A DNA stretch of 26,240 bases from Pezizomycotina sp. ARF18 (Eukaryota > Ascomycota), in NCBI GenBank assembly GCA_002224055.1, contig AZLU01000018.1:1-26240 (forward strand), written 5' to 3'. Positions 890 through 23,225 of the stretch are shown piece after piece (within the stretch, counting starts at the first letter, position 1; every line of letters begins with the position of its first letter). The position numbers and the translations under genes were made by a program. The notes below the pieces were generated by a model. That model was not told where the DNA came from. It saw only the letters and a program-made list of their open reading frames with translations, and did not search any database.

Positions 890-1221
890 TTTTACGTTTT
901 AGTAAATTTCGTTTGAAGTTGAAAATCGAGAAAAGTTTTCAGTTTGGGTCGTCGCAAGAAGAAAAAAAAAAAAAAAAAAAAAAAGTGAACGTGAAATTTT
1001 TTGGCCGGAAATGCCAAGACCGATAGCGGCTCTGCGAACCTTCTATCCCACTAAAAAAAAAAGCAACAAAAGGAAAACAACCCACTGCCACGCAACCCAA
1101 ACGCACTATCCGACTGCAGCTTTCTCCCTCTTTCCTTCCGACCCTCCAATCTTCCCCGAAAACAAACGCCGTTAAACCCCCGCTGTCACGACTCCATTCC
1201 CTCGCATCCTCTATTCCCATC
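890..1221. promoter_or_regulatory. Divergent promoter region, SAS10 / MIM2
   Basis: The 332 bp between the two divergent start codons must contain both promoters and 5' leaders. A poly-A run of more than 20 nt lies at 961-984 and a shorter A tract at about 1052-1062. The part next to MIM2 is pyrimidine-rich, as is common in fungal leaders. No specific operator was recognised. Confidence 0.5.
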
Positions 1222-1629
1222 ATGGCCGAGACTCAACGGCGTCGCTCCTCGACATGCCCTCGTCCTCGCAGCTCTCAGACTCCCTCGCGTCCGTCGACAG
1301 CATCGACGTCGACGCCATCTCGATCGACTCCAGGACTCCGACGCCGAAGCCGAGTGGCAGGAGTCCATACGGCAGCTCGAGCTCCTACTCAGCATGGTCT
1401 GGTGCCGTTCCTCGGCAATGGATAGGGAGGAGGTGCGCGTTTTGGGGTGAGTAGCTCTTCTCCGGGGAGGGGTTTAGAAACTCCGTTTGGAAGGAAGGAA
1501 GGAGAGCAGTGCTGACTGCAATTGCGTAGCATGAAACGGTTCATGGAGTGGAGTACCCGATACAGGTTGTCATGACGTCGAAGGTCGCGTACGAAGGAGC
1601 GGCTGGTCGGTGCTGCTACGCTATCGTGA
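1222..1629 (+). CDS. MIM2: Mim2-like mitochondrial outer-membrane import protein
   Basis: Mim2 is a small fungal protein that works with Mim1 to insert helical proteins into the mitochondrial outer membrane. The start at 1222 gives MAETQRRRSS. A Ser/Asp-rich stretch follows (SSSQLSDSLASVDSIDVDAI), then in shifted frames an EAEWQESIRQLELLLSMV helix, VPFLGN and WIGRRCAFWG. One intron (1447-1529, GTGAGT...TAG, branch-like GCTGACT) leads to exon 2, MKRFMEW..YPIQVVMTSKVAYEGA. It ends in a VGAATLS-like tail at TGA 1627-1629. The total, about 108 codons, fits the family. Each frame change is cured by one added base: near 1250 (TC_GAC), 1333 (AG_GAC), 1398 (GTC_TGG) and 1418 (AA_TGG), plus one near 1550 and one near 1605. 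The assignment comes from the acidic/Ser N-terminus, one membrane helix and the YPxxVVMT segment; it is good but not certain. Confidence 0.68.
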
Positions 1630-2832
1630 TGGAAGGTTACGCATGGGGCTTTTTTTTTTTTTTTTTTTTGGAATTGAATACGACTACAGAATATCGATCG
1701 GACGAATCGGACGATGAAAAGGAGAAATGCTGTCATTTTTTTTTTTTATGTTCGATCACAATGCAACTCAGCAGCTATATCACGTTTCCTACGACAAAAA
1801 AATAATATATATACAAAGAACATGTATATCACCCGCATGTGTAGACGACAGAACCATTTGTTCGGCCCTATTCTATTAGAGAAGTTGCTCGCTGGTATTT
1901 CCTTTTTTCTTACATCTTGCCTAATTCATTCTCTTATATCCGAGGCATTGAGCGTTTATCACTTTTATATACCTCTGTCTTCCACCTTTGATACACTATT
2001 TTTGCAATATGTACAACCTTATATTCCTCCCTTTTACCGCGACCATTCTACCACTCTCCTCGTGAGTGTTTCATTCGCAAACTTTTGTTATATTGTGTAT
2101 AAACCGAAATACTGCTTTTAACCTTTCGATAATAGGCCTAAGGCTTGAGAATAAAGAAGCGAGCATTGCAATGATCATGATACTTCTCTGAAAGCCCTGC
2201 GCAATCCATCTTCGATTTCCAAGCGACCCCTGTGATGTTAACCCTAATACAATATTTAGAAGCACTTATAGGATAAACATGTCCCTAATTACACCTTTTA
2301 TTCATTATTTTGCTTCCTGAAAGGGCTCTTCAAGTAGCGACGAAGCTGTATCGCAAGATCTCAGCACAGATAAAAGTTCAAAGGCCTAAACATCACTTGA
2401 ACATACCGTCAATGCAGAACAACGTCCAGAAACGTTAATCCGAGGAAATTTCAATATACAAAAATAATATCCCGGAGCCACCTCGGATTGAGCTACCATA
2501 CGATTTATTGCCGCCGGCGGAGGTCCGAACGTATTCTCATTATTTAGAGTAATATGCCGCCTAAATTGTTTTCCGTGGCTCTCAATCTTGGTGAACGTTT
2601 CTACTACTAGTAAATAGTATCTATGGCTCTTTCTCAGCACTGCGTCATTCGAGTAGACGGTAGAACCGTTATTAAAAAAAAAAAAAGGCTTCTATAAAAA
2701 CGCGCTTTTCGCTGCTCCGTTATCAGAGAGCTTCATTTAATGGTCTACTAGATACTCTACAATTCTACAAAGTTTAGCTTAACAATTCACAAAGCTGTAT
2801 CTCAATAAAGACGAACGCGCCAAGAATCAACA
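1630..2832. other. Intergenic region between MIM2 and the CMD-like gene
   Basis: About 1.2 kb of AT-rich DNA. It holds poly-T tracts (about 1651-1669 and 1737-1747) and short open stretches without recognisable protein similarity, the longest being minus-strand 2386-2640. A TATAAAA at 2693-2699, about 135 bp upstream of the CMD start codon and just after an A tract, is a possible core promoter element. Nothing else can be supported. Confidence 0.5.
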
Positions 2833-3542
2833 ATGCGCCTCCCCTACGCCCCCTCCACACCTCCCTACACCGCCGACGCCACAGTCCAAGAAACCTACGC
2901 CCGCGTCGCCGCCCGGCGCTCCCCCCCCACTGCAACCCCTCGACCTAACCCTCCTCCACTCCCCGCCCGTCGCCGACGGCTGGAACTCCTTCCTCGGCCA
3001 TCCGCACAAAAACATCCCTACCGCCTGACATTCGCGAAATACTCATCTGCGCGTCGCATCCCTCAACGGCGCCGCCTACGAGTGGGAACACCACGCACCC
3101 CTCGCCGCCGCCGCCGGAATTAATTCCGACGGAATGACGGCTTTAGAATACGACGGAAAATACCATTATGGTAGAAGAGGGAGATGGAAGGCTTAAGTGA
3201 GAAGCAGTGGGGTGCTGTGTGGTACGCGGACGCGATGACGGTGGATGTTAAGGTTGCAAAGGAGGTGTTTGATAATTTGAGGGAGATTTTAGTGAGAGGG
3301 AGGTTGTGGAGGTGACGGCGACGGTGGCGGGTATAATTGCGTTAGTAGGTTTTGGTTGCGCTCGACGTGAGTTTTTACTGTGAACTTTTTCTTTCCCTCT
3401 AATTGTTTTTTTTTTTTTTTTTTTTTTTTTTGAGATGATTGTGATTTGGGGGTTGTAATTGTATCGGTGTAGAGAGATCTAGTGCGGCTTTTGCTAACGG
3501 AGTTTTGTGTGAATTGTAGTTGGAGAAGCGAACCCGAAGTGA
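2833..3542 (+). CDS. Carboxymuconolactone decarboxylase-like (AhpD-fold) protein
   Basis: The family includes 4-carboxymuconolactone decarboxylase of the protocatechuate pathway and AhpD-type peroxidase relatives. The start gives MRLPYAPSTPPYTADATVQE, then ETYARVAARR, and in successive frames LDLTLLHSPPVADGWNSFLG, SLPPDIREILIC, VASLNGAAYEWEHHAPLAAA, EKQWGAVWYADAMTVDVKVA and EREVVEVTATVAG, then CVSRF and LVALDV. This order, with the RE..IC, ..NGAAYEW.HHAPLA and final ALDVGE elements, is the usual fungal one. One intron is placed at 3367-3519 with a CTAAC branch at 3494-3498; exon 2 ends GEANPK with TGA at 3540-3542. About 186 codons. The intron contains a T tract of about 25 nt. Around eight single-base deletions are implied (for example near 2928, 2998, 3050, 3180, 3291, 3331, 3352 and 3367). 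The substrate cannot be read from sequence; context suggests aromatic catabolism. Confidence 0.83.
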
Positions 3543-4365
3543 GGAGCCGGCGCTGTTAGTTTGGGGGTTCTCGTTAGAAACCAGGCGGTTCGGCTACAGC
3601 TCTCGGATGCGTGATAAAGCCCTCTTAAAGTAAAATTCTATAGTAAATTGTCCATGCTCATAATAATTAAGGATATATAGCTATAGCTGTCGTACAAATG
3701 CTGGTGAGCTGTAAAGCATCGTGGATGACGGCTTTCTCATACGACTCAAGATTTGTATATAGACTCAAAAAAGCGCTTGCACGCGAAATGGAAAGCGAAG
3801 TTTGAAGATGGTATGGGCGATTGCCGCTATGGTTGCCGTTAGTCTCTCGGTTAGGCTTTAAGAGCTGAAGCTTTGCCGAGATCCTGCCAGTGCGGAATAA
3901 TGAGCTCCGCTTTTTGTGCGACAGTAGGAAAGTTTCTCATTCGGGTTGCCGCCTGAACAAATTTGGGAGGCCTAAAGTAGTAGTCATGGAGTAGCCATGG
4001 TCATGGTTAAGATATTAAATTTCTCAAGCTTGGGGTATTGCTCAAAGTGCTTCAGTTGATTAAGCTCACAAAGTGGTCTCTTTCCCAATGATTTTGGCAG
4101 CGATTGAAAAGTTATTGATTAATTTAGCAACTGAGATAATAAAAGCTAGATACAAGGCAAGTAAAAGAAATCAACCACAAAGACAAATCTTTCTTTTTTG
4201 AGACGCCGAAAATAAATAAGCAGATCGTAAACTATTTTACAGAGAAGATAAGGCACTGTCTGTTCCTATAATAAAAAATCCAAAGTGATAGAGTGATTAA
4301 AAAAAAAAGAAAGAGAGTCGTCTAGAAAAAGGAGAAAGCGTGAATATAGGTAATGGTTATAATAT
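3543..4365. other. Intergenic region between convergent genes
   Basis: 820 bp between the 3' ends of the CMD-like gene and the dioxygenase. It is AT-rich, with no open frame of note, no RNA gene and no repeat that I could recognise. It presumably holds both 3' UTRs; several AATAAA-like and TAATAA-like motifs are present, but I cannot assign a polyadenylation site. Confidence 0.4.
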
Positions 4366-5308
4366 TTAAACCTGGTCCGGCTTCTTCCTGAAGAGAACGC
4401 TCGAGTCCTGGTAGCTGCCGTCTGTGCCCTTCGGCGCCAGGGTAACGTTATACTCGAGATCAAGCGTCGCCTTCGGATCGCCCTCGCGCGGCTTGAAATC
4501 GACAACGAGGTCGTCCTTAACAGCAAAGACGGAATCCGACGTCAGATACGGATCGTCCTTGGGGAACAGCTGCGTAGTAACAGCTTGTACTCTGGATGCG
4601 AGATCATCAGGTGAATATGCGCCGGCCTCATGGGGTGGCGGTCCATAAGCTGCAGAAGCGTCCACGCGGGTCCATCTGTGGGCAAGGAATACGCCGTCGG
4701 CCGCAGGCAGTAGAAGTAGTACTCCCGTCTTCATTCGTGCGAATTCCCGGAGGTTATTAGCGATTGGTTCTCGGATCTTGGAAATCGTATTTCCCGTTCG
4801 CGGAAGCCTGCAGATGTCGAATACGGCATTAGGAATGCCCTTTTTAGTATCGAGGTCGATTACTTTCCCGTGCATGAGCGCGACCTGCCCCTGGTGTTTA
4901 TCCTGGATGATACTACCGCCCAACTCCCTAAAAGGAGCATCGGGGACCAGAACGGACCGAGGATAGAAGAAGACGTCGGTGCCTCGCCGTTCTTGTCAAA
5001 GTGGTGGTGGCGATCTCGTCGACGAGGATTCGAGGCCGATTAACGTCGGAGAGGCGGTGCATCTCGTTGCGGGTAGCGTTGCTGATCTGGCCGACGGAGT
5101 TGAGGTATTTACTCCAGTCATCCATTCTTCGATCGTGAGCTCGTTCTCGATGGCGAAGTCGTGGACGTGCTTGATTAGGGAGGAGAGTAGCTGCCGGTCC
5201 TACCCTGGCATTTGGGACCGAGGCCGTTGATGCAGCTCTCGGTGAAGGCTTGGAAGACCTTTGGTCGAACGACGACGAGGGTTGGTCGTTTCCGTTGGTG
5301 GTGGCCAT
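4366..5308 (-). CDS. Intradiol ring-cleavage dioxygenase (protocatechuate/catechol/hydroxyquinol type)
   Basis: Non-heme Fe(III) enzyme that opens a diphenolic ring between the hydroxyls to give a cis,cis-muconate. The start [10 protein letters not shown] is at 5308. An N-terminal dioxygenase domain follows: a [20 protein letters not shown] helix, DEIATTTL, and [20 protein letters not shown] in a shifted frame. The catalytic core reads [60 protein letters not shown] and [11 protein letters not shown]. All four metal ligands are visible: Tyr codons at 4787-4789 and 4689-4691, and His codons at 4617-4619 and 4611-4613. The C-terminus is [13 protein letters not shown]...FRKKPDQV, with TAA at 4366-4368. 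About 315 codons, no intron. Frame breaks are single-base losses, for example near 4811, where the expected Trp of DIWQ is lost. The adjacent carboxymuconate cyclase favours protocatechuate as substrate; this is inference. Confidence 0.92.
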
Positions 5309-6408
5309 GGTGGAAAGGGTAAGGGTAAGGGTAGGTAGGTAGGTTAGAGAAAGATGTGTAAAGGTGTTAGGTAAGTGTGGATGTTATAACGTTAGGAGGA
5401 TTGTTGTTGGATGATCTGCTTTTGCGATCTGGTTTCTGTTGGACTGATGTCTGGAGAATGAGAATATCAAAAAATGGAGATCGTGAAATCCCCTTCTTAT
5501 ATATCTTTTTCGACGACAGCGAGTCTAATTTCAACGATACGCCGACATCTAAACACCCTTTCACAAAATCAAGGAAACCTGTGTTCTACAGTGCCCTATA
5601 CTCCGCGATAACAGCGCGCACACACTAGAAGCCGGAACCCCAAATGCCGAGTGCCATTTCTGTTCACGTAAAAGCCTCTGAATTCCTTCGCACAACAACA
5701 GCATAGGTGTTTCGCTAAGTGCTTTCTGTGATTCGGGACTTACGCTCGGATGTCGTCTCCATGCATGACATGACCCCCAATTGTTATTCCCCCCCCGCCT
5801 TTCAAGAGGGCGGTTATAAGCCATTAAAATCTCGACCAATGGCCCCACGGATTTCTTTTCGCTGCTCACAAGAAAAGGGAGTTTGAGGGTTGCGGGGGTG
5901 GCCGGATAAGTATTTATCCTGGGCAAGCTCTTTGAACTCTATGGAGATGTGCCGTGACTGCCCGAAAAACTCGTAAAGTCAGGCAGCGTGCCACAAGAAA
6001 AGCTTGGTAAGTAATTTCGCGGCTACAATGCTCGGAAGGGGGTTCTTCCATGCAGCAAGGGTTTCCGGCCCCAACTACTACGCCGTTGACATCGTCCCCA
6101 CAACACCCCGAAAACACCCCGTTCAGCGTTCTATCGGCAGATAATTCGGGGTATTCTGTTAGCAAAGACTAGAAAAAAAGAAGTCGTACGAGTGTCGCAG
6201 CTCCTTTTAAAGCCCTCAAAAGCTCTAGAATTATGAAATGCTCAGTAATGTATTCCATCGGCCGTAAGATCACGGGCTGAGTGAATGGTCTATTCGCGGT
6301 CAATTCGTTCGTTCACAAGTGCAGTTCGCTTATTTTCAGAGCTCGAGCTTATTCTTCCGCATTTCGACTTCAATTGCAACAACCACCACGAGTTTTCAGC
6401 AGAGGAAG
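5309..6408. promoter_or_regulatory. Shared divergent promoter, dioxygenase / carboxymuconate cyclase
   Basis: 1.1 kb between two start codons transcribed away from each other, both in the same predicted pathway, so coordinated control from here is likely (inference). The region holds a minus-strand TATATAA (plus 5498-5504) about 190 bp upstream of the dioxygenase ATG, short AGGGTA/GGTA direct repeats at 5316-5344, and a GATA palindrome listed separately. No credible ORF was found; the longest open stretch (minus 5561-5926) has no recognisable features. Confidence 0.55.
5904..5919. promoter_or_regulatory. Palindromic GATA-factor site
   Basis: GGATAA, a 4-base spacer GTAT, then TTATCC: perfect 6-bp inverted arms that place two GATA cores on opposite strands. 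Fungal GATA activators of the AreA/Nit2 type bind closely spaced GATA pairs. It sits centrally in the divergent catabolic promoter. Another GATAA occurs near 6140. Function is inferred. Confidence 0.4.
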
Positions 6409-7607
6409 ATGCTTCACCATTTGATGATAGGACGTGACGCCTCCAGGCGCAATATTCACCGTCGCGTTCGACGACGAAGCCTTAACGTTGAAATTGGTCA
6501 AGCGGACTGCGATTCCAGAGGACGAACCAATATCGTGGATGACGTTCGACGTAAGTGACCGCCTGTTCCCAATTCCAATGGCTTTTGCTAACAGGTATCA
6601 TTAATGTAGCATGTGAAAAAGACCATCTACGCGCTTCGATGAAGAAATGGTCAAGTCACAAAGTGATCGGTCCCACTGAAATTGTGCACTCGGCTTCATT
6701 CCCCATGGAACATGACCGTACGTCCTCCACCTCGCCTTTTTCCTTTTAAGCTCACACTTCTTGCTAACAGCTCCAACCGCCAGCCGCTGCATCCAGCGCT
6801 GATACGAACACCGCGCCATCTTCGTCCTTGCGGCGCACAACCGCCCTACAACGTCTACGGCAACCCGTTCTACGACCACGCCGGCACGGCAACGTCTTCT
6901 CCGTATCCTCCGACGGCGCGCTCTCACAAAACATCCAGAATTACGAATACTCACCCAAAACTGGCATACACGGCATGGTCTTCGACCCCACGGAAACTTA
7001 TTTATACTCCGCCGACCTTCGGGGTAATAAAATATGGACGCACAAAAAAGCACCCCGAAACAGTAAACTAGAATTAGTTAATTGCATAGAAGCACCCGAT
7101 CCGGGCGATCACCCGCGCTGGGTCGCCATCCACCCCTCGGTAAATACCTCTACGTCCTCATGGAAGCCGGTAACCGCCTCGCGTCCTACGTAATAGACGA
7201 AAACACAAAATTCCCGTCTTCACGCACATGACATACCGCTCGTCCCACCCTCCGCCCCGGAATTAAAAAACAGAATGTACCGCTCCGACGTCGTGTCCGT
7301 ATCCCACAGCGGTAACTACCTCTTCGCGAGCGCGCGGTCGAATTCGGCTAGTTTAACGGGGTATGTTAGTGCGTTAAGTTGGGAAAAGTGGGATATAGAA
7401 CGGCAGATTTGTTTAAACCCTACGCCGACGAGCGGGGGTCATTCGAATGCCGTTTCGCCGTGCGATTGGAGCGATGAGTGGTTGCGCTTACGGACGACGA
7501 GAAGGGTTTCGTGGAGGTTTATAGGTGAGGATGAGTTTTTGGTTAGGGTTGCGCATCTTGATATCAAGGAACCCGGGTTTGGGATGAATGCTATATGGTA
7601 CGATTGA
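6409..7607 (+). CDS. Carboxy-cis,cis-muconate cyclase (fungal 3-carboxymuconate lactonizing enzyme)
   Basis: Seven-bladed beta-propeller lactonase that converts 3-carboxy-cis,cis-muconate to 3-carboxymuconolactone (EC 5.5.1.5) in the fungal protocatechuate pathway. The start MLHHLMIG is at 6409, followed in shifted frame by PPGAIFTVAFDDEALTLKLV. Intron 1 is 6551-6609, exon 2 is HVKKTIYA..MKKWSSHKVIGPTEIVHSAS, and intron 2 is 6718-6770 (GTACGT...TTGCTAACAG). Exon 3 carries NIQNYEYSPKTGIHGMVFDP, TYLYSADLRGNKIWTHKK, EAPDPGDHPRWVAIHPS, MYRSDVVSVSHSGNYLFASA, NPTPTSGGHSNAVSPCDWSD and the C-terminus EPGFGMNAIWYD, with TGA at 7605-7607. About 362 codons, close to the characterised Neurospora enzyme's length of about 365. 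Frame breaks are single-base deletions. The near-identical C-terminal segment makes the family call secure. Confidence 0.93.
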
Positions 7608-7757
7608 GGTTGGAACTAAGGTAGGCTCTTTTTTCAGGCACACTAGTATGAGAAGATAGAGATAGACTTCCGCGGAATATGTATTAGAACAATAGCTATG
7701 CGCAAAATACTAAACAACATCATAGTACCTTTATTTTTTTTTTTTCTTTTGTGACCT

Positions 7758-8147
7758 CTAGTTTAATATAAACTTCACCACACCCAACGTACCAACAGCG
7801 TCCAATAAACATGCCAGCCCGCTTAACCCACCAGAAACTCCTCGTCCGGACTCTCCAAGCGGCCATAAATGCCCCAGTACAACCCCGCGATGGAAACGTG
7901 AGCTACCAAAGCCAGCCCGCACGCACAGATAAACAAGTAGACGCATCGACGTTCCTCAGGCGGTTCGGCGGAGGATTGGACATAGAGGACGTAGTGGAGA
8001 TACGTCGTTCGAGTATTGCCGTGACTATGAGGGCGAGGATGTGAGCTGGCTCCGGGTAGGCGCTTGCGAAGCGACGAGGGAGTTTTGTTTGCGCGGGTGG
8101 ATTGAGATGTTTGTCGGTGCGGCTTCGACGTCGATATTGTTCGTCAT
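7758..8147 (-). CDS. Small probable membrane protein, unidentified
   Basis: Read from ATG 8147-8145: MTNNIDVEAAPTNISIHPRK, then YPEPAHILALIVTAILE. In the next frame comes a long, clearly protein-like run: TYLHYVLYVQSSAEPPEERR, CVYLFICACGLALVAHVSIA, GLYWGIYGRLESPDEEFLVG. In a third frame there is a hydrophobic tail, LSGLACLLDAVGTLGVVKFILN, with stop TAG at 7758-7760. The frames join by single-base insertions, as in neighbouring genes, giving about 130 residues with three hydrophobic segments. It lies antisense between the cyclase 3' end and the hydrolase promoter. I do not recognise the family. The evidence for coding is amino-acid composition, the order of frames and the absence of a competing gene. 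A mitochondrial or ER membrane protein would fit. Confidence 0.5.
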
Positions 8148-8814
8148 TGCGTCCCTTTTTTTTTTTACTAGCCTTTGAGGATAGATCTAGTAGCAGATGC
8201 CTCAGGCAGGGGCCGACGATTCCAGAAAAAAAAAATCCATTTAAAAGCCTATACTTGAGAAATCGATAGCAGGTGAGACAAGGTCTCAGGCTAAAGAGCA
8301 TTCGACTACTCGTTGGCCGTTGATAGTAGATAACATTCTAGTATCTGATTCCCACTATCGTTATCATTCTCAATGTCAATTGGCGCAGCTTGGTACTGTC
8401 ATTACATTCCTATATCTCATTTTGCTGGATGGACGGGAATACTTCTATATTACACTAGCACCTGGCGATGCTCATTTTTTTTTTTTGGGTGCTTTTTTGG
8501 GTGCTTTTGATGCGGCAGCCAGTGAAGGAACCAACCAAGTCGACGCCGGCAGTTCCTTTTGCCGTTGTCGACTTCCGCCGCCTTTTCTTTCTTCTTTTTT
8601 CTTTTTTTTTTCTCTCGACCGAGCCAAACCGCCGGCCATCAACAACCGTCACCGCCTGCCGACACAAAGTTGACGATGCATCCATCAACCACGAGCAAGG
8701 GTAGCTTGGAATACGACCGGTAGCTACGGACGGCTTTACTAGAAGCTCTCGATACAAAAAGCCACTACAACCCGTTTCGACTTGCAATTTTAGAAGACTC
8801 CTCAATTTTTTCTT

Positions 8815-8845
<31 letters not shown>

Positions 8846-8968
8846 CCACCCAAATGTTCCCATTTGAAGTACACTGACAATTCAGATTCAAGTACGACCA
8901 AAACTCTCTGCAGTACTTCTTACAATTTAATCGAGCTTCCCGCGAAAAACCCGAAGCCTAAAGCAACA
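8148..8968. promoter_or_regulatory. Divergent intergenic region, small membrane protein / EthD-hydrolase
   Basis: 820 bp with very long T tracts (about 8600-8611 and 8816-8842), a short tandem direct repeat TTGGGTGCTTTT (about 8485-8510) and pyrimidine-rich stretches. Open stretches on both strands here are low-complexity Lys- or Phe-rich translations of homopolymers and are not genes. It should contain the promoter for the hydrolase at 8969. Confidence 0.45.
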
Positions 8969-10568
8969 ATGCGCCAACGAAAGGCCTCCTCTTCGTAACA
9001 ATGCAACCGCACGATTCCCTACCGCCGTCAAAATTCCACGACTGGTACAAACAACGAGCACGGCCCACCGGCTCCGCTTCAATTCCATCTTCGCCAAACG
9101 GTTCAGGTAAAGCCAACGACGGCGAAAAGCCGGAATGGCTGGCTATATACGACGTCCACGATATGTCCGAGATGGTAAAGAACCGTACGTTTCCATCAAA
9201 ACCACCGGTGCAATCACAACGGAGCGCGATGCGATGAAGAGATCAGCGTCGATAGGCGTTTTACGACCTCGTGAGGAGAAATCCCGCGGTGAAATTTTAT
9301 AAAGACGGTGGAAGTTGGTAATGAGGGAGGGAGAGTAAGCTTGTTGTCGTAAGCTTGCGATACATGGTGGAAGAAGGAAGAGTTAGAGAAGTGTATAGGG
9401 AGGAGCATATGGAACTACTTTCTAAAGTACCTGGGTGGAGACGGAGTCGGTTGTTCGTAAATTCTACAGTGGACGAGAATCCGTTCGGTACGGAGTACGT
9501 CGGCGTTCACGATTACGATGCGAGTAATGGATTAGGTGGTGAAGAGTTTAAAGCTGCGGTGAGTACGCCGTGGCACGATAGAATCTTCGAGGAAGTCGTG
9601 AAGAGGCGGTACAGAAGGACGTACGACTTATACTACACCTTCGTCCCGCGCCGCGCGATATCGCGAATGCAGCGGAAGAATTTACAAGCCACGACGGCAA
9701 AACTACAACCGGAAACGGCGTTATACAATCCTGCATCACTACGAACGACGGCGTCGAATATCGTACAAACTCGAAGGGAACGGGGATGTACGCGCACCCC
9801 TAATAGTGCTTGTAATTCCATTCTAGTAGATTGGGGTATATGGGACACCTTCATCACGGACTTCTTCTCTAACGAGGAAAATAAAAAATATAGAATCTAC
9901 GCTTTCAAAACCGCGGCGGACGGCGGACTGTGGACAGCGAGCGATTAATATGGACGTACTAGCGTCTGATGTATTACCCTGTTAGATGCGTTACGGGTTA
10001 AGCCAAAGCAGCGGCTGTAATAGGCGTGAGCATGGGCGGCGCGACGGCGCTCAACGTCGCGCTGAAGTACCCGAGCGGATATCGTGTTTTATATCCTGCG
10101 ATACAAACTCTCACGCGCCTGAAAGCATCGAAAGGCATGGGGGAGCGCATCGCCATATCCGAGAAGGAAAACGCACCGGCGAATATTGTCGGCGAGCAAC
10201 TGGCAGAAGCGACCGTACGGCGGTGGTTCGTAAAGGAAGCTTCGACGGCGGGAGAAACAGAAGGAATCGAGAAGGTGAAAGAGATGGTCAAGAGTAATAG
10301 TTTACGGGGTTTAAGAGGAGCGTGAAGCGCTGTTCGCGTACGATATGAGAGAGGAGATGAAGGGGAGTAGTGTTAGGGTGCGTTCTTCGTTGGGTCGGGA
10401 TGGAATACTGCCGGATACTATGAAGACTATGGCGGCGGGGCTAAAGACAGTGGGGAGTATGTTGTATGACGGCGCTGGGCATTGCCGATGGTTGAGCAGC
10501 CTAAGGCGGTTGCGGGTGAGGTTACGAGGTTCCTTGTGGGTAATGAGTGCGATACGATTTTAGATTAG
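8969..10568 (+). CDS. EthD-like plus alpha/beta-hydrolase fusion (3-oxoadipate enol-lactonase type)
   Basis: The N-terminal half looks like two EthD/dimeric-barrel modules: GLLFVTMQPHDS, KFHDWYxxxxGPTR and EKPEWLAIYDVHDMSEMVKN, then MVEEGRVREVYREEHMELLS, KVPGWRRSRLFVNSTV, GTEYVGVHDY and STPWHDRIFEEVVK. The C-terminal half is an alpha/beta hydrolase: SNSILVDWGIWDTFITDFFS, IGVSMGGATALNVALKYP (nucleophile Ser codon 10029-10031), FISCDTNSHAPES, ATVRRWFVKE, GRDGILPDTMK (probable acid Asp 10399-10401) and GAGH (His codon 10480-10482), then PMVEQPKAVAGEVTRFL. Stop TAG is at 10566-10568. About 533 codons, no intron seen. I start at ATG 8969, because the frame giving GLLFVTMQP begins upstream of the in-frame ATG at 9001 and needs one missing base right after the ATG. 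The family hydrolyses enol-lactones or carboxymuconolactone; the exact substrate is inferred from neighbours. Confidence 0.83.
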
Positions 10569-11600
10569 AATCTCAACGATCGATAGGAATTTTCTCACGT
10601 TTATAGTCGTTTCATTTCGCGATCTCGTCGTCAAAAACTCGATTGTTGTGACACTGCCACACATAGTGCCGCATTTCCTTTTTGAACAATGTATTGACGA
10701 GGCGAATGTACAATATTATATTGGCAAAGATTATAGACTTATCAACAAACAATTCCGTTACTCAATCGATTCTTGTCATTAATTTCAAACACCCCTCTTT
10801 CGAGCGCAAACCGCAACATCTACGGCATCGCATACCAAGAGGACTTTTTTGCTATAAACTACAATGAGGTCGTTTTGATTTGTTGAGGAACACAAACCCA
10901 CCAACCATCTCGGCCCGATGTCGCCATTCTCCGCAAAAAAGACCGGTACCGTCGGCGATACCTCTAGGCGGTGGATGCGGAGCTCCGAGGGCCTGTTTTT
11001 CAAGGTTTCTGCAAAGCTGCTTTAAGGCGTCGCTAAAAACGTTAAACCCTCGCCAACACGCCAACAAGTGTGCCCTCTCGAGAATCCCAGCATCTCACAA
11101 AGATTTTAACTTCCTTGCTCGAAACCCCCCTCTTTCCCTGCTCTTTTCTGCATGAGACGAAAAAAAAAATTTAATTTAATTAAAATAATTAGCAACAATA
11201 ATGAACTGGGAATCCTCAACGGAATCCTAGCGCATGGTACATCATGGCCATCCATGCATACTTCCTTTCTGCTATTGGGAACGGAAGAAGCCGCCCTTCC
11301 TTGCGTCGAGGACGAGGAAGGGTGGGAAAGTGGAGTTGGTTTTTCCTGGCCTTGGGGATATTACTGCCCTCGGGTTGCCATGCTTGTTCGAGGATTTAAC
11401 TCGATGCTGTGAAACTTTACTCCATCTCCACGCCCAAATCTTGTTATAAGGATGGATTGCCGCCCCGCTTCTTAAACTTTCGCACAGGAAGCATTTCGAT
11501 CAACCTTATAGCAAATCGCCTTCTCTCTGTTCGAAAGATTCTGATCTTACTTACCTATTATACCTTTTTTTTTTTTTTTTTTTTGTGGTGGCTGGACGTC
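10569..11600. other. Intergenic region upstream of the MFS permease
   Basis: 1.0 kb after the hydrolase stop and before the permease ATG. It contains an A/T-rich block (11160-11192) and a T tract directly upstream of the permease start (about 11565-11584). GC-rich patches near 10905-10985 contain several CGG/CCG triplets of the kind bound by Zn2Cys6 regulators, but I see no convincing inverted pair. No ORF here is supported. Confidence 0.45.
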
Positions 11601-13556
11601 ATGGCTGCGAACTCTGAGAGGAGCGAGCAGTTGGCTGCTCAGAATGCCGATATAAAGAATAATGACCGTTCGAGCGAAGACGCCGAAGGCGGCGCCGATA
11701 TCGCGTCGGACGCTGAGGTCGCTAGAGTATACAGGTACGCTTTTCTTCTTTTTCGCGCAATTGATTCAAAATACCTTTCTTTCCTGGCATTTCAATTATG
11801 TTCCCTATAGATGCTAACATCTCTCATCTCTACCACAGAAAACTCGATTACCGTATCATCCCGGGTACCTAATCCCCACACCCACGTTCTCAATTCACAA
11901 CCAAAACTAACCAATCAAACAGCTCTATGGACGCTGTACTTCCTCTGCTCCGCCATCCGCGGCAACGTCGGTCTCTCGCTCACGATGAACATATCGCCGG
12001 CCACTCGCTGGGGCAGAATCTAGGCTTGAATGCGCACCAGATCAGTACCGATTGGCTCTCTTCTACGTCGGTTACTGCGCCTTCGAGGTCCCCGCGAACC
12101 TCATCATGTCGCGCATGAGCCCGCACGCCTGGATGAGCCGCATTGTTCTCGCCGTGGGGGTTGTGGGTGCTTGCTTCGCTGCGCTGTCGGCGACTTGGAA
12201 TTGTAGTACGTACCCACAACACTCCAGACTGCAAGAAAAAACCAGATATCGAAATTGACTCTCTTTATAGTCTCCTCCGCCTCCTCCTCGGAATCGTCGA
12301 AGCAGGGTTGTGGCCCGGAATGTCTACTACCTAACCCTCTTCTATCCTCCCTCCCACATCGGCAAGCGCATCGGCTACTACTTCACCGCAGCACAAGTTT
12401 CCGCCGCCGTCGTGGGCCTCGTATCCGCCGGTTTCCAAAAAGATGGACGGCGACGGCGGGTTGACGGGCTACAAGTGGATGTTCCTACTTTACGGCCTCA
12501 TAACCGTCGTAAACGGTATTTCGCTTCTCTGGTGGTTACCCGACAGACCCGTTGCTCCGGAGAAGAAAGGAAAAGGTCGTGGTACTTGAAGTTCCTACCG
12601 CGCCAGCCGCCCGCCCTTTCCGATCCGAGGGATCAGAGGATTCATTATGAGGAGTTGAAGAGGGTTTATCACCCGCCGATGTGGACATTGAAGGATTTGC
12701 TGAAGTTTTCTTGGATTGGAGGGTTTGGCCACTCGTTGTCATGTACTTTGGCGTCGTCGGTGTGGGAATCGGCGTGCAGAATTACGGGACGCTGATTATT
12801 AAGGCGACGAATCCGAATCTTAACGGGATCGATTTGAGTTTGCTGTTTGCGCCGATTTGGATCGTATGTTTGAACACTCACCTGCCCAGACAAGAAGTTT
12901 TTAGAGTTAATGGTTTTTTGTCAGATGGACCTCATCGCAATCCTGATCGTTACGCCGATATCGGACCGCTTCCACAAGCACAGGGCGCTGTTCTTCTCCG
13001 TCCCCGTCGTCCTACAGATCGTCGGTCTCGTTGTTGTATCGTACGGTCAGCACCCGTGGCCAAGATACGTTGGTCTCCTCATCGTTGGTTTCGGTCTCGG
13101 ACCTACGGTACCCATCGCCATGACTTGGCAAAGTAAAACCTCCTTACCCATCCCCCCCCCACCTTCCCACTAGAAACAACGAAACATCCTGAATTAAGCT
13201 CATTGAAAAACAAACAGTGAAATCTTCCAACCCCGCCACGGCGAAGTAGGCGTCGCCGCGCATCCGCTCTCGTGTCGGCCTCGGTAACCTTGGTCAGTAA
13301 CGACGACGTACGCCCTCTACGAGGGCTGGGCGTCCGACGCCGTCCGGGGACCGAACCAGTACCACAAGAGCAACCTCGTCATGATCGGCATACTCGTGTT
13401 GAGTATTCTTAGCAGTATCGTGCTTACAGTATTGCTGCGCGTTTTCGATAAGGAACATGCGCCGGTTATTGTGCTCGATCAGGCTGCGAGGAGGCAAAAC
13501 GAGAGCGGGAGAGTGGGATTAAGAAGCCGAAGTTCCTTTCGAAGGCTGTCAATTGA
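11601..13556 (+). CDS. MFS permease, Dal5/allantoate-type anion:cation symporter
   Basis: Plasma-membrane importer of the fungal ACS subfamily, whose members carry small carboxylates, vitamins and ureido compounds. The start MAANSERSEQLAAQNADIKN is at 11601. Five introns are visible: 11735-11838, 11865-11922, 12206-12270, 12864-12924 and 13133-13217. Exons read KLDYRIIP/ALWTLYFLCSAIRGNVG, GHSLGQNLGLNAHQIS, ALFYVGYCAFEVPANLIMSR, MSPHAWMSRIVLAVGVVGAC, LLRLLLGIVEAGLWPGM, YPPSHIGKRIGYYFTAAQVS, AAVVGLVSAGFQK, GYKWMFLLYGLITVV, MDLIAILIVTPISDRFHKHR, GLLIVGFGLGPTVPIAMTWQ, EIFQPRHGEVGVAA and NQYHKSNLVMIGILVL, i.e. about twelve helices over about 530 codons. The stop is taken as TGA 13554-13556 (frame KKPKFLSKAVN); the neighbouring frame would end at 13572. 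About eight single-base indels are implied, one of them an extra A near 12438. Its location suggests uptake of an aromatic or carboxylic acid; this is inference. Confidence 0.9.
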
Positions 13557-13951
13557 GTACATGATAAGGTGAGAATGTTAGAGATGTAGAGATTGAGGGG
13601 ATATAAGGGAGGTGACTTGGAGGAGGAAGGTGGAGGGGAGTGTATAATGGCGGAAAGGAAAATAGTACATAGCTATCTTTTATATTCACTTCGAGATAAG
13701 TGCGACTTTCAATGTATATAAATTTTTAATACAAAAGTCTGGCTTCAATATTGCTGTTCTTGAACAATCGTCAGCTTCTACGAGTTAGCATGCCGTTTGA
13801 GATCTGTCAGAAGCACCGTCTCTATTTGGTTTCCGACTTTATCCCATGCAGGTAAGATATAATTTACAAACAGACATTAAAGAACCAAAAACGCCTTGCT
13901 GTCAAGATTTTTCTAGAATTCTGAGTGTTTTGCTATTCTCTTGAGCCTTAC
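13557..13951. other. Intergenic region between convergent MFS and RRP4 genes
   Basis: About 395 bp, AT-rich, holding the two 3' ends. An AT-rich stretch around 13715-13733 could serve 3'-end formation of the permease mRNA. No gene or structure is visible. Confidence 0.4.
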
Positions 13952-15055
13952 TTAACTCATCCTCATCCTCGCCAGGGCCACATCCACGATCCTCTTCCCC
14001 GCGACGCCCTCAGGCCCACCGTGTCCCCACTCCATCCCATCCAGATCCTCCTCCAGCGCAGCTTCGTACCAAATTCAGACTCTGCTCGTCCACCTTAACA
14101 TTCCACCTAACAAGCGCCCTGATAACGCACGCGAGCCTCGAAATCTCCTCCTCGTCTGCATGCTAATCTCATCGTTAACGTTCGAGTACATCTCCTCACT
14201 CGCTCCTCCTCCAACCGCGTAATCGGAACGACCCTACTGCTATCCCCTCCGCCGCCTGAAGATAGCAGTAGAACTCGCCGCTCCCGCGTTCGGAACGGTG
14301 TGCTTCGCGATCCATATGTAGCTGTTCACGCCGAGTACTACGTCCACTTCATCCCCGCCGTTCGCGGTCGGTATGGTTAAATGTGCGATTTTATACGCCG
14401 GACCATGCCCGCTTTTACTTTCAGGAACATCCCGTTGCGTAATTTCCCGTACTTTAGGGAGCGGGTGTGTAAGCTCGCCGCGCCGTCTTGGAATAAAGAT
14501 TGTACTTCTGCGACGAGGAGGTCGCCTTCGCTGAAGAACGTGCGTATTTGTAACTCGTCCGTGCTCGTGCGCTTGCGCAGTATTCCGCCGGGTAAGTTTA
14601 TGCTAGACAGTAATAACTGCGCCGAGTGCGGCGCGCCGATGTCGACTTTCCACCGCTTGCTCTGTACTTCCGTTATCCGGCCCACGACAGGTCGCTATCT
14701 CGGGGTGGTACCGCGCGCGCAAAGCGTTGACGGAGAGGAGCTTGTTCGTTTTACGATCGTGCCGCGAGGGATGACGCGATGGATTGCTGCGATGGATCGT
14801 CGGGGAGGGGAGCAGGTATGTGCCGTGGCCGCGCATCCATTGGGGTCGTCGGTTACTATTTCGCCGGGGGTGACGATGGACGTTCCGGCGGCGACGGTGC
14901 TGCGGCCCCGGTTGATGCGGACTTCGGAGGACGGCAGGGAGACGCCACCATGTTCGTGTCGCCTTCGGCGTCGGAGTAGGAGGGCGATCCGGCGCCACTG
15001 CCGTCGAGGGCTTCACTGAGGAACGGGGCGGTTCTTCGATTGTTATGTACGGCAT
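13952..15055 (-). CDS. RRP4: Exosome complex subunit Rrp4
   Basis: Cap subunit of the RNA exosome, with N-terminal, S1 and KH domains, in nucleus and cytoplasm. The start [20 protein letters not shown] is at 15055; an in-frame upstream open stretch to 15205 is not part of the protein. Diagnostic segments in order: [136 protein letters not shown] (S1), then [47 protein letters not shown] and [19 protein letters not shown] (KH), with stop TAA at 13954-13952. About 368 codons, no intron needed. Several single-base losses interrupt the frame (for example near 14385, 14190 and 14940). Its divergent partner is the membrane-protein gene at 15327. Confidence 0.94.
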
Positions 15056-15326
15056 CGTGTGGTTGGTTTGTCGTGAGGAAGAGTGGTGAGAAGGTTGAAA
15101 GTTGAATCTTTCCTTTGTGCGGCTAAAATTTTTGAGGTTTGCTTTGTGAGGCTCACGAAATTTTCCTGACCACCAATAATTGTTCGAATTCTTTAACCCC
15201 ACCAAAATCCACTACTTTTATCGAACCGACCACATACAGCACTCCTCCAGGATCTACCTCTATCGTCATCAATTGACCTGAAATAAAGCTGTTGTAGCTC
15301 ATTCTACTGTGCATATTTCCTCAGAG
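15056..15326. promoter_or_regulatory. Divergent promoter region, RRP4 / membrane protein gene
   Basis: 271 bp between the start codons at 15055 (minus) and 15327 (plus). It is compact and must serve both genes. No specific element was recognised. Confidence 0.45.
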
Positions 15327-16735
15327 ATGGCTTCGAGAAGCATCTCTTCGGTATTCACTTCTGCGAAGCAGCTAGAGTCTCGTCGAGAACGAGATCGTTC
15401 CGACCGTCCCTCTCTGCCCGGAGACTCCTGTCAACCGCAGCTGCCCAGCAACGGCCACTATCACATGCGACGCGCGATATTGTCTCGAAATCGACGGCAA
15501 GGCCGCTTCCTTACTTAATTCTACGAACAAACTACCGCCGCTACGCACATACATCAGCCGAAAAGGACCCCGCTCAGGCCCCCACCGCAGAAACCACGAC
15601 GATCATCGAGGCAACCGGCGGCAGCGTCTACACTTCCAATGACATCAGAGACCTAGAAAAGCTCATGGCAGCGATCGACCGCAATTTATTCAAAGAGGCG
15701 GCGAAGGTTCTGCCCCGGGAAGAACAGGTCATCGACGCCCTCAGCGCCTTGCAGCGGTACGCTCTCAAGCTGAAGTCCACCGAGAGCTCCAGGTCCGCCG
15801 CATCCCACATGACCGAAGGATCCGCATCAGCGATCCTCTCGTTCGCCGGTAGCTCCTCGACTGCAACAGAACCGGACTCACAAGCGACATCAACGAAGCA
15901 GATTGGAAAGGGCGGAAGGCGCTATCGTCGACGACGCAGGCGCAGATCGAAGCGAAGGAGAACCCGCCGATTCATCCAGTAATGGACGTAGCGTACAACA
16001 TCCTCTCACACCCGTCTGTATTTATTTCTCCGGACGTGCTCTCGGCGTACGTCTCCCTCGCGGCAACAGTCCGCGACCCTTCGACTATCCCGTCCATGTT
16101 CCGCAAGTACGCCAACAAACCCATCCTCTCCTCCCCGGACGCTAAACCGTCGAAACCGAACCCCAACGCCGCGAAATTCTCCATACCGCTAGATACAGCA
16201 AAAGCAGCGCTCGAAGTAGCTATAGCAGCGCGAAACCTACCGAAGGCGCTGGAAATAGTAGATACGTCCGTCGGCGCGAAGGCGTTCCTCCGCCGGAAGA
16301 CGATGACGCAGGTCGTACCCTTCTGGACGCTCTGCGGCGTCGTACCCGTGGGATTATGGAAGATAGCGTCGTGGCTAGCAACGTACGATAATAACTTCTT
16401 ACATTCTACGGCGACGGGTTGGGCTTTTACGTTGCTGTGCTGTTATACGGTGTATACGGGTACGATAGGTATGACGGCGCTGCTGACGTATAATGATCAT
16501 ATGTTGAGGGTTACTTGGATTCCGGGTTTCCGTTGAGGGAGAGGTGGTATATGGAGGAGCAGAGGAGGATGGCGGATAAAGTTGCCATGGCGTGGGGTTT
16601 CCAGAACGCGCAGGAGTGGGGGTTGGAGTCAGGGTGGGAGTGGCAGTATTTGAGGCACTGGTGCGGCGTTAGGGCATGATAGTGGACGATTCTACGGTGC
16701 TGGAGGCGAAGGAGATACGCATTGGAGGTCATTGA
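15327..16735 (+). CDS. Probable mitochondrial two-pass membrane protein, unidentified
   Basis: The start MASRSISSVFTSAKQLESRR is followed by a Ser/Arg/Ala-rich, acid-poor leader that looks like a mitochondrial presequence. Next come helical segments (SNDIRDLEKLMAAIDRNLFK, EEQVIDALSALQRYALKLK) and a variable Ser/Thr-rich linker. In other frames follow PPIHPVMDVAYNILSHPSVF, DVLSAYVSLAATVRDPSTIP, SMFRKYANKPILSS, KFSIPLDTAKAALEVAIAAR, NLPKALEIVDTSVGAKAFLR, two membrane spans (VPFWTLCGVVPVGLWKIASW and TGWAFTLLCCYTVYTGTIGM), then a conserved-looking tail with EEQRRMADKVAMAWGFQNAQ and EWQYLRHWCGVRGMIV. The repeated paired helices resemble PPR/TPR-like units. The stop is uncertain: TGA 16733-16735 in one frame, or TAA 16767-16769 in the frame ending LEVIEKGVWIYNYSK. 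I cannot name the family; a role in mitochondrial gene expression or respiratory-complex assembly is only a guess. Confidence 0.62.
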
Positions 16736-18624
16736 GAAGGGTGTGTGGATTTACAACTATAGTAAGTAAATGTTTTTCAAGCTATATTATCTTGATACGA
16801 TCTTAGAGCTACTTGACAAGTGCAGATCCCTCTCCGTATTTCTTTTCTTCCTTTTCTTCCATCCTCAATTTCTTCCCTTATCCCCCCCATTTCACAAAGG
16901 GAATCAGCCATTACCTCTAGTCCATTCGAAATATTGCATATTTTTATAATAAAATCAATACCACCACAGCTCATGTTAAGATTTCATATGAACATTCAAT
17001 ATTTAGATGTCGCTGCTAACAGGCATTTAGTGATTCAAATACACCAAACTTTACACAAATCTGATTATAAATCCGACACTCTCGACTGAATGTATCATAG
17101 CTATCAATCAATAGTGATTCTATCAAATTTCACTAAATATATACATACATTTCGACTCGAAATCAAAGCAACTTGAGTGTTTGTTGGCTTTGCTCCCATG
17201 CAAAAATGGAATCTGGTGACCTTCATACAACAGCTTCCCTTTTTTCTCCACCGTTCTCCGCCCTCTGCTGTTTACTAACAATGATATATTTTTTCTCTCT
17301 TTTTTCTTTTCTTTTCATCCCCAACACCCCTGATCGTCCGGGCACGCATGATTTGCCTACTGAAACGCTAGCCTATAAGAGGAATAGTTGCACAAGCTTA
17401 CAGCTCATCCGAACGATTCCTTTTTTTTTCTTGTAATTTTTTTATTTTTTTATTTTTCTGTTTCCAAAAATATTATACGGAGAAGGAGAGAGAAAAAAAA
17501 AAAAAAAACCGAATGGAGAGAGCGGGAAAGGGAACAAACGAAACAGGTACTCCCGCATACACAACAGGAAAAAGGCATCACCAATGAGAAGAGAGACAAA
17601 AAAAAGAACAGCCTTGTTTACTCGACGAGGCTTCCGCGACACTGTCGCGATTCGTTATATTCGGTCGTCGTTATGTTTTTTTCTCTTAATTAGGAACTTT
17701 CCCCCAATGTGATGCTTTCTATTCAGCTTGGCTTTTTTTTTTTTTTGAAGGACCGTGTCTGATTCGATAGGATCAGCGGTCGTGATAATTTTTCAATCCT
17801 TTGCAGAGCTGAAGATGATGTAGTCGCCAAAAAAGCGCTTGCATACATTTTCCTTTCCAGGTATCAGGTGGCAGGCGTAGTACGTCGTTCTGCATCGGCG
17901 TCTTTCCTGCCCCCAATTTAGGACGTACTTAAGTAAGTGTATATCGGGACATTTAATTTCTATACGTAAACACGAGCGAACCAAGACGAGGTATTCCAGA
18001 CGTGTACCTTGTTTCGAGGGAAATAAAAGTAGAAAAGGGAGACGATTCTCATATATAGTATATAGTATTCGCTCTATATATATACTCTCCTCCTCCCATT
18101 ATTCTATTTTGTTCTGTTTATTTCTATTATCCTTCTTTACCCAATATCTGTAACATTTTTCCTCGAATATTTACACGACAGTCGGCTAAAGCTCTGCAAT
18201 CGTAGTATAAAATAAATATTTAGCGTGTAGTGGACCTCGAGTCCCGCCCCTCCTTTTTGCCCCAGGAAGAGCTCACCCTTTCAACCCAGAAAAAAAAAAT
18301 TTCAATTACCCCCACATATACATAACCCACACGACAGCAGGGAGACGGTATATCGACATAAAAACTGTCCATTTTGTCCTTACTACTCTCCTTTGGTTTA
18401 CTTATAAGCATTGCATACTGAACAGGTTCAGTCTGTCTTTGTTCTTGTTTAAAAGGAGAACATTCAGGCAGTGGGCGATATTTACTGCAATTGCTGTTCA
18501 AATCCATAGTGTTTTCAAACTTGAAAGCTACACATCCGTCGCCTTTCTCCTGTCTATTTCCCCTCCTTTCTCCCTCTTTTTTCCCGCATCACTAGGACCG
18601 CCACAGAATTTCTACCTCCTCAGC
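16736..18624. other. Long intergenic region
   Basis: 1.9 kb without a supportable gene. It is rich in homopolymers and pyrimidine tracts: about 17420-17455 T/A-rich, 17493-17508 poly-A, and 17733-17745 poly-T. TATATA-type simple sequence lies at 18051-18085. Open stretches on both strands are short and of low complexity. The last 100 bp before 18625 are pyrimidine-rich, as expected for a fungal leader. Confidence 0.45.
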
Positions 18625-19769
18625 ATGTTTTCGATCCTTCGTTCATCTGGCCCACGGCTGTTAGGTTGGCGCGGAAGAGAATATCGCCAGTCTGTCTTCG
18701 CTCGGTCTCGACGCTCCAGGACAATCCTCACATCGTAAGTCACCCAGGTTTCTCATAGTTGTGCAGCTTTGGTTTTACAGACTCCTCTTTGTTTCGGCGA
18801 TTGAGCTTTCGACCCGTTCATCCTGTTTACCGCGCCGACAGGCGCTGCTCAACAATCTCCCTGCTTTCTATTCCAACGAACCAGCCGTGCCTTGGCGTCT
18901 TGACCAACCAGCTGACCATTATTTCTCCAATTTCTTACATTCTAGTACGTCCACAAGGACCCCAAGAACCCCGACTCGCACATCCTCAGCTTCCTCGAAA
19001 GCGAACCGCCCGTCGCGTCCGTCTCGATCGGCTCGACGACTTCCATCCCTCCCACGCCAGATTCCTTCAAGGAGAACCAGAAATTCCGACGTATCATGCA
19101 GTACGTCATCGCCACCCACTGCGCCAACGACCCGGACGTGAAGAACATCGCAAAGGGTTTGTTCGCGCAGTCGGAGCGGAACCGGGAGCACTTCCGCCCC
19201 AGCGACCGGACAGGCCGACCGTGGTCAGCCTGTCGGAGCACGCGTTTAAGGGAGCGGGCGTGGCGGCTGGGTTCATATTTCCGACCTGAGAAATCCGCCG
19301 ATATCAACAGGAGTCCAGATCCCGAGGATATCTTCGGCAGCGTCGAGTGCGACGGGAAGGGAACATCGTCGGCGGGTTCAGCGGGTACCAGGCTTGCGAG
19401 GCTTACAGGATGGTCACGCGGAAGGGAATGTAAGTTCTAAAGAAGACAAAAAAAAAAAAGGACCCCCCCTAAATCTTCCCATTGAGAAGGAAAAAAACTG
19501 CCGGATCGGCTCTTTTATACGAGATGCACAGTATTATCACATTCACGGTGCTTGAGGAGCGCTGCACGGCAATTGCGCCTTTGTCCACGTTTTAAAATTC
19601 ATAGTCCCACTTTTTTTTTTTTTCTTATGAAAATAATTCGCTAAAAAAAAAAATTTCCTTCTTCGTTTTCGTTCGTTTTACTAGGATCACCTTGACCGAC
19701 TACCTGCGCGAAAGGCTCGTCGAGAAACTGAAAAAGGAAGAGGCCAAGGTCAAAGAAGAGCAGAAGTAA
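18625..19769 (+). CDS. Conserved-looking fungal protein of unknown function
   Basis: Exon 1 (18625-18734) encodes MFSILRSSGPRLLGWRGREY and a further Arg/Ser-rich stretch, compatible with a mitochondrial presequence. A probable intron, 18735-18945, starts GTAAGT, has a CTGAC branch and ends TCTAG. Exon 2 reads YVHKDPKNPDSHILSFLESE, PPVASVSIGSTTSIPPTPDS, KFRRIMQYVIATHCANDPDV, KNIAKGLFA, RPDRPTVVSLSEHAFKGAGV, PDPEDIFGSVECDG, GNIVGGFSGYQACEAYRMVT and REGM. A long intron (19430-19684, 255 nt) precedes the last exon, ITLTDYLRERLVEKLKKEEA ending EEQK, with TAA at 19767-19769. The PEDIFGSVE...YQ...YRMVTR...YLRERLVEKL pattern is familiar from uncharacterised Pezizomycotina proteins. No enzymatic motif is visible. 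Exon phases need one or more missing bases, as elsewhere in the window. Confidence 0.65.
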
Positions 19770-20828
19770 TTGAACGATTACCGAATCTACCGGTGGACGA
19801 ATATTTTTACCTTCCAACGGCTCGAGTCGAAGTTTCCTCGGAATGACGCAAACCTCGTTAAACGCGTTTTTCTTTCGGTTCCACTTTCACAAAACGATAA
19901 GCGATAAGGCGAACGATGTGTACCTGCCGGCTTAGTTTCACATGAAAGGAAATACGATGTCAATACCGAACACTTTTATCCCAGTTACTAAAATATTTGT
20001 TTTATCACTTCATATTTTGGCGTTGGTTTTAATTGACTTATATTATTACCTACCATTGGCATTATTTGACTCCAATATACTTCATCTTCTCCTATATATA
20101 CTATGAATTTCTTATCTCGCAAACCACGCTACCTACATGCTATCCGACCAACAAATCATCCGCTAAGAAAAACCGTCCAACAAAAAAAAACAATCAAACG
20201 ACACTATATAATCTTTAGTATCCACATATAACACATAATCCTCTTTTTGGTCGCTGAGTCCTTCTGGATACCCGCGAACTTAGTTAACTGCATGGTTGAA
20301 TTGAATTATGTCGCATTATTGATAACTCTCGGATTTATTATGCGGTGACGACTAATGGGATCGGCGTATAGGCTGCAAAAGTAGTATGAACTGAATAGTA
20401 AGAGCAAGTCATGCCTGAAATATCTTAAGGAAAGGCATTTTTAAATATCACTCTACGGCACATGAGATGCATGTCGTATCGATCCGAGCCATTTCACGGA
20501 ATTTCGATAACCTTTTCTTTTCTGGGTTGCCTGTTACACGTATGTCTTCTAGATTTGTGATCGCTTTTGCAAATAAAATTCGAATTTACAAAGCTGTGTT
20601 TGACTTGGCTGTACGCAGCAGGATTATTCGATCGAATTGTTCTGGTCATCTGAAAAGTAGCCATCAAGTTTGTCGTTGTGGAAACAACTAAACTATGCTC
20701 GACTCGAATCGCTGTATGGTGATTCACCATCGCTTGTAAGTAGAAAGGAATGCATTTATGCCAGCATCATGTCGTGGACTGGTTGGCACTTCTAGTTTTT
20801 ATCGCTCGTCTCCCTGGTTACGGCAAGT

Positions 20829-22670: not shown

Positions 22671-23225
22671 ATCTCATGATTAGTATTTAACAGCCCTTCC
22701 CGGTAGACTACGTATGCTATATCTTCTTTCTAAGGTCATATGAGGCTGCAATTAGGTTCGTTGTTAGCTGGATTTGCAAGGAAGTCGGCATGGGGCATTT
22801 TATCACGCTGTTGCATTTGATTCTTGAAAAATATTTTTCCACATAGTATGAGCTAAGTAGTATAGCCTATTGTCTTTTCGGTTGGTGGGTAGAGACTTGA
22901 ATGCACTGATAACCACTAGGGTGTATAACCGGGGTACGGCGGCGTTGAAAACCCTTCATTTAGCATATGTGATATGATGCGACTGCTAGGAGGCGAATTC
23001 ATATAAGAACTTAGCGCAATGGCGTAGTCGTGTTTGAATACTCTGAGACGGCATAGTCGACTTTCTTATGAAGCTTTGCGTTGCCTTGCCCCTACCAGTA
23101 AGCGTTTTCAAATGGCGATACTTCGTGATGGCTTAACCTATGAGATATCATCGCATGGCGTCCGTCGCTGGGAAAATTATTATGGTTCCCACTTTCGTCG
23201 GTACATCCCCACGACTTAATTCATC

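What the first reader, a model, noticed from the sequence alone, without database searches (positions are those of the whole stretch)
1222..19769. Deletion-biased single-base errors interrupt nearly every gene
MIM2, CMD, dioxygenase, cyclase, hydrolase, permease, RRP4 and others are each broken several times, and nearly every break is cured by adding one base while conserved protein continues on both sides. Examples: AG_GAC at 1333, AA_TGG at 1418, the DIWQ Trp codon near 4811, and HLP at 10482. Normally essential genes are hit as hard as dispensable ones, while introns and codon choice look intact. That points to consensus error in an unpolished assembly, not gene death.
Basis: partly seen in the sequence, partly recalled or inferred. 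Interest (0 to 1): 0.7.

Follow-up and report, generated by a model that had tools for sequence, protein, structure and literature searches.

The report
Uncorrected sequencing errors in fungal assembly
The genes in this fungal sequence look broken because the assembled genome is missing single letters throughout, a sequencing and assembly artefact, and not because the organism's genes are dead or read in an unusual way.

Summary
The window is the first 26 kb of contig C18 of an unnamed 46.4 Mb, 408-contig assembly. Frame-aware alignment to solved homologues found 23 frame breaks in three window genes (cyclase, RRP4, dioxygenase). It found 45 more in six chaperonin genes on other contigs. Of these 68 breaks in 10.7 kb, 60 lack 1-2 bases, 8 have extra, and 0 of 3,487 matched codons is a stop; 15 simulated intact genes gave none. 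The RRP4 profile matches nowhere else in the genome.

Two internal tests speak against biology. The two ends of a mitochondrion-like contig are the same 15.7 kb written twice. They differ by 346 gaps against 13 mismatches, with losses rising toward each contig end. Non-coding 5S rRNA copies also lack bases: 13 deleted letters to 1 inserted in the 11 copies counted of 15 found. Gene death, programmed frameshifting and insertional RNA editing fit poorly. No reads were available, so the cause and platform are inferred. Ordinary artefact; low interest except as a warning about this assembly.

The parts
1222..1620 (+). MIM2 gene, at least four frame changes seen by eye, all in the lacking direction
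   Evidence: Frame translation; joined pieces match PF19117 Mim2, E 5.8e-14, profile 1-45 of 45. Ends approximate.
2833..3370 (+).
   Evidence: Frame translation; joined pieces have no Pfam match. Ends approximate.
4450..5196 (-). Intradiol dioxygenase, aligned part: 8 frame breaks (7 lacking, 1 extra)
   Evidence: yardstick 3n9t PnpC, 41% identity; no simulated control at this divergence
6437..7604 (+). Carboxy-cis,cis-muconate cyclase-like gene: 9 frame breaks, all lacking, two introns in the alignment
   Evidence: yardstick 1jof, 67% identity
8990..10563 (+). Broken alpha/beta hydrolase-like gene; frame change at 10482
   Evidence: Esterase just below its cut-off. Ends approximate; breaks not counted.
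11601..13570 (+). Broken MFS permease gene
   Evidence: MFS_1, E 1.4e-27 on joined pieces. Ends approximate; breaks not counted.
14297..14987 (-). RRP4, aligned part: 6 frame breaks (4 lacking, 2 extra)
   Evidence: yardstick 8pel_H, 61% identity; single RRP4_S1 match in the genome

Best explanation
The frame breaks are residual consensus errors of an assembly made from error-prone reads and not, or not sufficiently, polished. Bases were dropped in base calling or consensus building, more often in runs of one letter and where few reads overlap, as at contig ends. The sequence therefore lacks roughly 5-10 bases per kb that the organism's DNA has, and the genes themselves are presumed intact. 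Shown: breaks in all nine genes aligned, on seven contigs; deletion bias; disagreement between two assemblies of one stretch; contig-end gradient; losses in non-coding RNA. Inferred: that reads would contradict the consensus, that the reads were long reads, that coverage is thin at the ends, and that polishing was missing.
For: 68 breaks in 10,725 coding bp over nine genes, 60 lacking to 8 extra, 0 of 3,487 matched codons a stop (the scoring discourages stops); 0 breaks in 15 simulated genes. Same bias at other penalties: 64:10, 56:5, 49:6. Single RRP4_S1 match in the genome. The two copies of the C50 overlap differ by 346 gaps and 13 mismatches in a global alignment, or 331 gap openings and 34 mismatches by blastn; each copy lacks most in the 3 kb next to its own contig end, and differing letter runs rise from 1.6% at length 1 to 40% at length 6. 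5S rRNA: 13 deleted to 1 inserted letter in 11 of 15 copies. In print: in a MinION worm assembly single-base deletions were the most frequent correctable consensus error, tenfold more frequent than insertions (passage of PMC5765664).
Against: No reads, coverage or assembly record could be examined. Eight of 68 breaks are in the 'extra' direction. A/T runs of up to 26 bases survive, which is not what simple homopolymer collapse predicts. Gaps far outnumber mismatches in the C50 overlap, whereas the worm assembly of PMC5765664 also had 28% transitions among its corrections, so the platform is open.
Confidence: 0.97

Rival explanations
1. Real gene death: the window is a decaying, duplicated or relict region, and intact copies elsewhere do the work.
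For: Every gene examined in the window carries frame breaks.
Against: No second RRP4_S1 match and no second copy of window 1-3000 apart from three short matches at its long A run. Chaperonin genes are broken at all six of eight loci aligned. No stops among matched codons and 61-84% identity to solved homologues in eight of nine genes (dioxygenase 41%). Mitochondrion-like and 5S sequences carry the same kind of lesion.
Confidence: 0.01
2. Massive programmed ribosomal frameshifting, as in Euplotes: the DNA is right and ribosomes change frame.
For: Essential genes (recalled) interrupted by frame changes, with conserved protein on both sides. Euplotes shows that such a state can exist (start of abstract of PMC10235951 and titles in the listing).
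Against: 60 of 68 breaks lack bases, the opposite of what +1 shifting needs. 5S rRNA, which is not translated, is affected. The same stretch written twice disagrees with itself. I did not test for a shift motif at the breaks.
Confidence: 0.005
3. Insertional RNA editing, as recalled for Physarum mitochondria: the DNA really lacks single bases and RNAs regain them.
For: Would give missing single bases in both protein-coding and structural RNA genes, as seen.
Against: Four of 11 counted 5S copies lack nothing while sister copies lack 1-4 bases. The two written copies of one C50 stretch lack different bases, mostly near their own contig ends. All four letters are lost.
Confidence: 0.003
4. An artefact of another kind: a consensus drawn across mixed haplotypes or strains, not simple under-polishing.
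For: Not excluded for nuclear genes, since no reads were seen.
Against: Mixing would be expected to bring many substitutions; the C50 overlap has few (13 or 34 mismatches against 346 or 331 gaps), and a contig-end gradient.
Confidence: 0.012

Closest known systems
Residual indel errors of long-read assemblies (passages of PMC5765664, and PMC12007338)
   Same: Deletion-biased short indels that fragment genes, linked to letter runs.
   Different: Density here (about 6 breaks per coding kb) is far above the under-0.05% of the genome reported for the Kastor example; platform and pipeline unknown here.
Euplotes-type +1 programmed ribosomal frameshifting (PMC4759687, PMC5011710, PMC10235951: search listing and start of abstract only)
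   Same: Many genes interrupted by frame changes in the genome sequence.
   Different: Direction here mostly opposite; untranslated RNA affected; one stretch assembled twice disagrees with itself.
Pseudogenes (general knowledge)
   Same: Frameshifted genes.
   Different: No second RRP4 match, no stops among matched codons, protein still well conserved.

Membership tests
Consensus error of an unpolished assembly | Indels, mainly single-base losses, outnumber substitutions | tested here: met
   346 gaps (293 single-base) to 13 mismatches in the C50 overlap; blastn 331 to 34; 60 lacking to 8 extra in nine genes
Consensus error of an unpolished assembly | Genome-wide, whatever the gene's importance | tested here: met
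   All nine genes aligned are broken, on seven contigs; only nine genes were aligned
Consensus error of an unpolished assembly | Two assemblies of one molecule disagree | tested here: met
   C50 start and end
Consensus error of an unpolished assembly | More frequent in letter runs | tested here: met
   1.6% of runs of length 1 differ, 40% (16 of 40) of length 6
Consensus error of an unpolished assembly | Worse at contig ends | tested here: met
   Clear in C50; in nuclear genes only suggestive, 41 in 5,164 bp against 27 in 5,561 bp (tally)
Consensus error of an unpolished assembly | Reads contradict the consensus | not testable with these tools
   No reads held
Pseudogene | Functional copy elsewhere or dispensable gene | tested here: not met
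   One RRP4_S1 match in the genome; essentiality recalled
Pseudogene | Nonsense changes as well as frameshifts | tested here: not met
   0 stops in 3,487 matched codons, with a scoring that discourages stops
Euplotes-type +1 ribosomal frameshifting | Genome carries an extra base at the shift site | tested here: not met
   8 of 68 breaks in that direction
Euplotes-type +1 ribosomal frameshifting | Confined to translated genes | tested here: not met
   5S rRNA copies lack bases
Euplotes-type +1 ribosomal frameshifting | Shift at stop codons with a site motif | not tested
   Break positions from the aligner are approximate
Insertional RNA editing | DNA of every copy lacks the edited base | tested here: not met
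   Copies of one C50 stretch and of 5S rRNA differ in which bases they lack

The most novel reading that the evidence does not exclude
A fungus whose nuclear and mitochondrial DNA really lacks single bases at about 0.5-1% of sites and restores them in RNA, the two written mitochondrial copies being real variants and not errors.
Probability: 0.003. Interest if true: 0.97.

Novelty: not a real feature. Interest (0 to 1): 0.06.

Why it matters
It matters only as a quality warning. Gene calls, pseudogene counts, gene-loss claims and selection tests made on this assembly would be unreliable until it is polished, perhaps most at contig ends, where this window lies. The read-free test used here, comparing the two overlapping ends of an unclosed mitochondrial contig, is cheap and can be used on other assemblies.

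Tried and rejected
Gene death, ribosomal frameshifting and insertional RNA editing were considered and rejected (see rivals). A second copy of window 1-3000 was sought for a nuclear version of the overlap test; besides itself only three matches of about 30-42 bases at its long A run turned up. tRNA counts were not used because only 63 of 1,606 candidates were scored; a likely pair in the C50 overlap (13561, 71 nt, and 228951, 70 nt) fits but was not aligned on its own. Four of 15 5S copies (L078-L081, 8-24 mismatches) were dropped before the 5S count as divergent; they hold 8 deleted and 4 inserted letters, and only 47 of 1,990 5S candidates had been scored. The two chaperonin loci on C53 were not aligned. 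A search for the assembly by size and contig count listed 11 papers, none of which I recognised as its source (listing only). A search on contig-end errors listed two papers; passages of one were seen. The control was run at the default penalties only, and not for the dioxygenase, CCT4, CCT5 or HSP60.

Full report
What is there. The window is positions 1-26240 of contig C18 (350,589 bp) in an unnamed assembly of 46,361,250 bp and 408 contigs. Gene content and best homologues fit a filamentous ascomycete (inference; organisms of the PDB chains are recalled). Single-frame pieces match Dioxygenase_C, Dioxygenase_N, RRP4_S1, Lactonase and MFS_1, some below Pfam's cut-off; joined pieces match Mim2 and MFS_1. 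The CMD label found no Pfam support and the hydrolase only weak support.

Counting the breaks. I wrote an aligner that lets a protein run along DNA through introns and frame changes and counts, without altering the DNA, where bases are lacking or extra. Yardsticks were solved homologues: 1jof (cyclase), 8pel_H (RRP4), 3n9t (PnpC), and chains of CCT2, CCT3, CCT4, CCT5, CCT8 and HSP60. Window genes: cyclase 9 breaks in 1,043 bp, RRP4 6 in 691, dioxygenase 8 in 747. Other contigs: CCT2 6 in 1,365, CCT3 3 in 1,451, CCT8 12 in 1,318; CCT5 7 in 1,295, CCT4 7 in 1,490, HSP60 10 in 1,325, aligned in two parts. Together: 53 single and 7 double losses, 6 single and 2 double gains in 10,725 bp. A double loss and a single gain can stand for one another beside a codon gap, so the split is approximate. 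At other penalties losses against gains were 64:10, 56:5 and 49:6. Fifteen simulated intact genes with two introns, three each from five of the yardsticks and 47-74% identical to them, gave 0 breaks in 18,417 bp. None of 3,487 matched codons was a stop, although the scoring discourages stops.

No intact twin found. RRP4_S1 matches once in the genome. The chaperonin profile gives 33 partial matches at eight loci; I aligned six of the eight, and all six are broken. That these genes are essential is established knowledge, recalled.

One stretch, assembled twice. Contig C50 (231,088 bp) carries most of the listed tRNA matches, is about 75% A+T in the parts read and looks mitochondrial. Its first 15,728 bases match its last 15.9 kb, so the circle was apparently not closed. 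A global alignment has 13 mismatches and 346 gaps: 228 where the start copy lacks bases (280 bases) and 118 where the end copy does (139 bases); 293 gaps are single-base. Blastn, with other scoring, gives 34 mismatches and 331 gap openings. Each copy lacks most near its own contig end: 70, 64, 58, 17, 9 bases in the first five kb from the start and 30, 19, 17, 5, 3 from the end. Between 4 and 13 kb the copies lack 47 and 41 bases with 2 mismatches, about 5 per kb per copy, similar to the nuclear genes. Runs of one letter that differ rise from 1.6% at length 1 to 4.8, 8.3, 13.9, 24.4 and 40% at lengths 2 to 6. I know of no biological divergence that gives so many gaps per substitution with a gradient tied to contig ends.

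Non-coding RNA. Of 15 5S rRNA matches, 11 fall into two types; they hold 13 deleted letters and 1 inserted. Four of the 11 (L067, L068, L069, L071) have no deletion. L070 and L073 differ from the first type only by deletions (2 and 3), L072 by one deletion and its last base. Four divergent copies were left out of the count. Lesions in an untranslated RNA that differ among sister copies speak against a decoding trick and against RNA editing. Real 5S pseudogenes could account for a few of them.

Interpretation. This is residual consensus error, deletion-biased, enriched in letter runs and near contig ends. In a MinION/Canu worm assembly single-base deletions were the most frequent correctable consensus error (44%), tenfold more frequent than insertions (passage of PMC5765664). 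The Kastor paper states that long-read errors are mainly short indels at homopolymers and that most indel errors in its example were false deletions (passages of PMC12007338). The low mismatch share and the survival of A/T runs up to 26 bases leave the platform open. Its region is a sample of a wider defect, perhaps made worse by lying at a contig end: 41 breaks in 5,164 bp within about 15 kb of an end (cyclase, RRP4, dioxygenase, CCT2, CCT8) against 27 in 5,561 bp more than 30 kb from one (CCT3, CCT4, CCT5, HSP60), my tally, suggestive only.

Noticed in passing
G000 contig C50 (231,088 bp), L063-L066: Mitochondrion-like contig whose ends overlap, implying a circle of about 215 kb, large for an ascomycete (recalled), with many internal segments 65-90% alike between its two ends.
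   Followed up: partly
5S rRNA loci L067-L077: Two 5S rRNA types that differ at about 10 positions coexist in the genome.
   Followed up: no
window 4450-13570: A dioxygenase, a muconate cyclase-like gene, a hydrolase-like gene and an MFS permease lie together, possibly an aromatic-degradation cluster; the dioxygenase's best solved match is PnpC, and hydroxyquinol dioxygenases follow.
   Followed up: no
window 24457-24870 (+): A 138-codon open frame without a Pfam match, single-copy in the DNA search, in a stretch from about 19900 to 26240 where I recognised no gene.
   Followed up: partly
window, e.g. 962, 1650, 3406, 8817, 11565: Unusually many long A or T runs, 20 to 26 bases at five places.
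   Followed up: no
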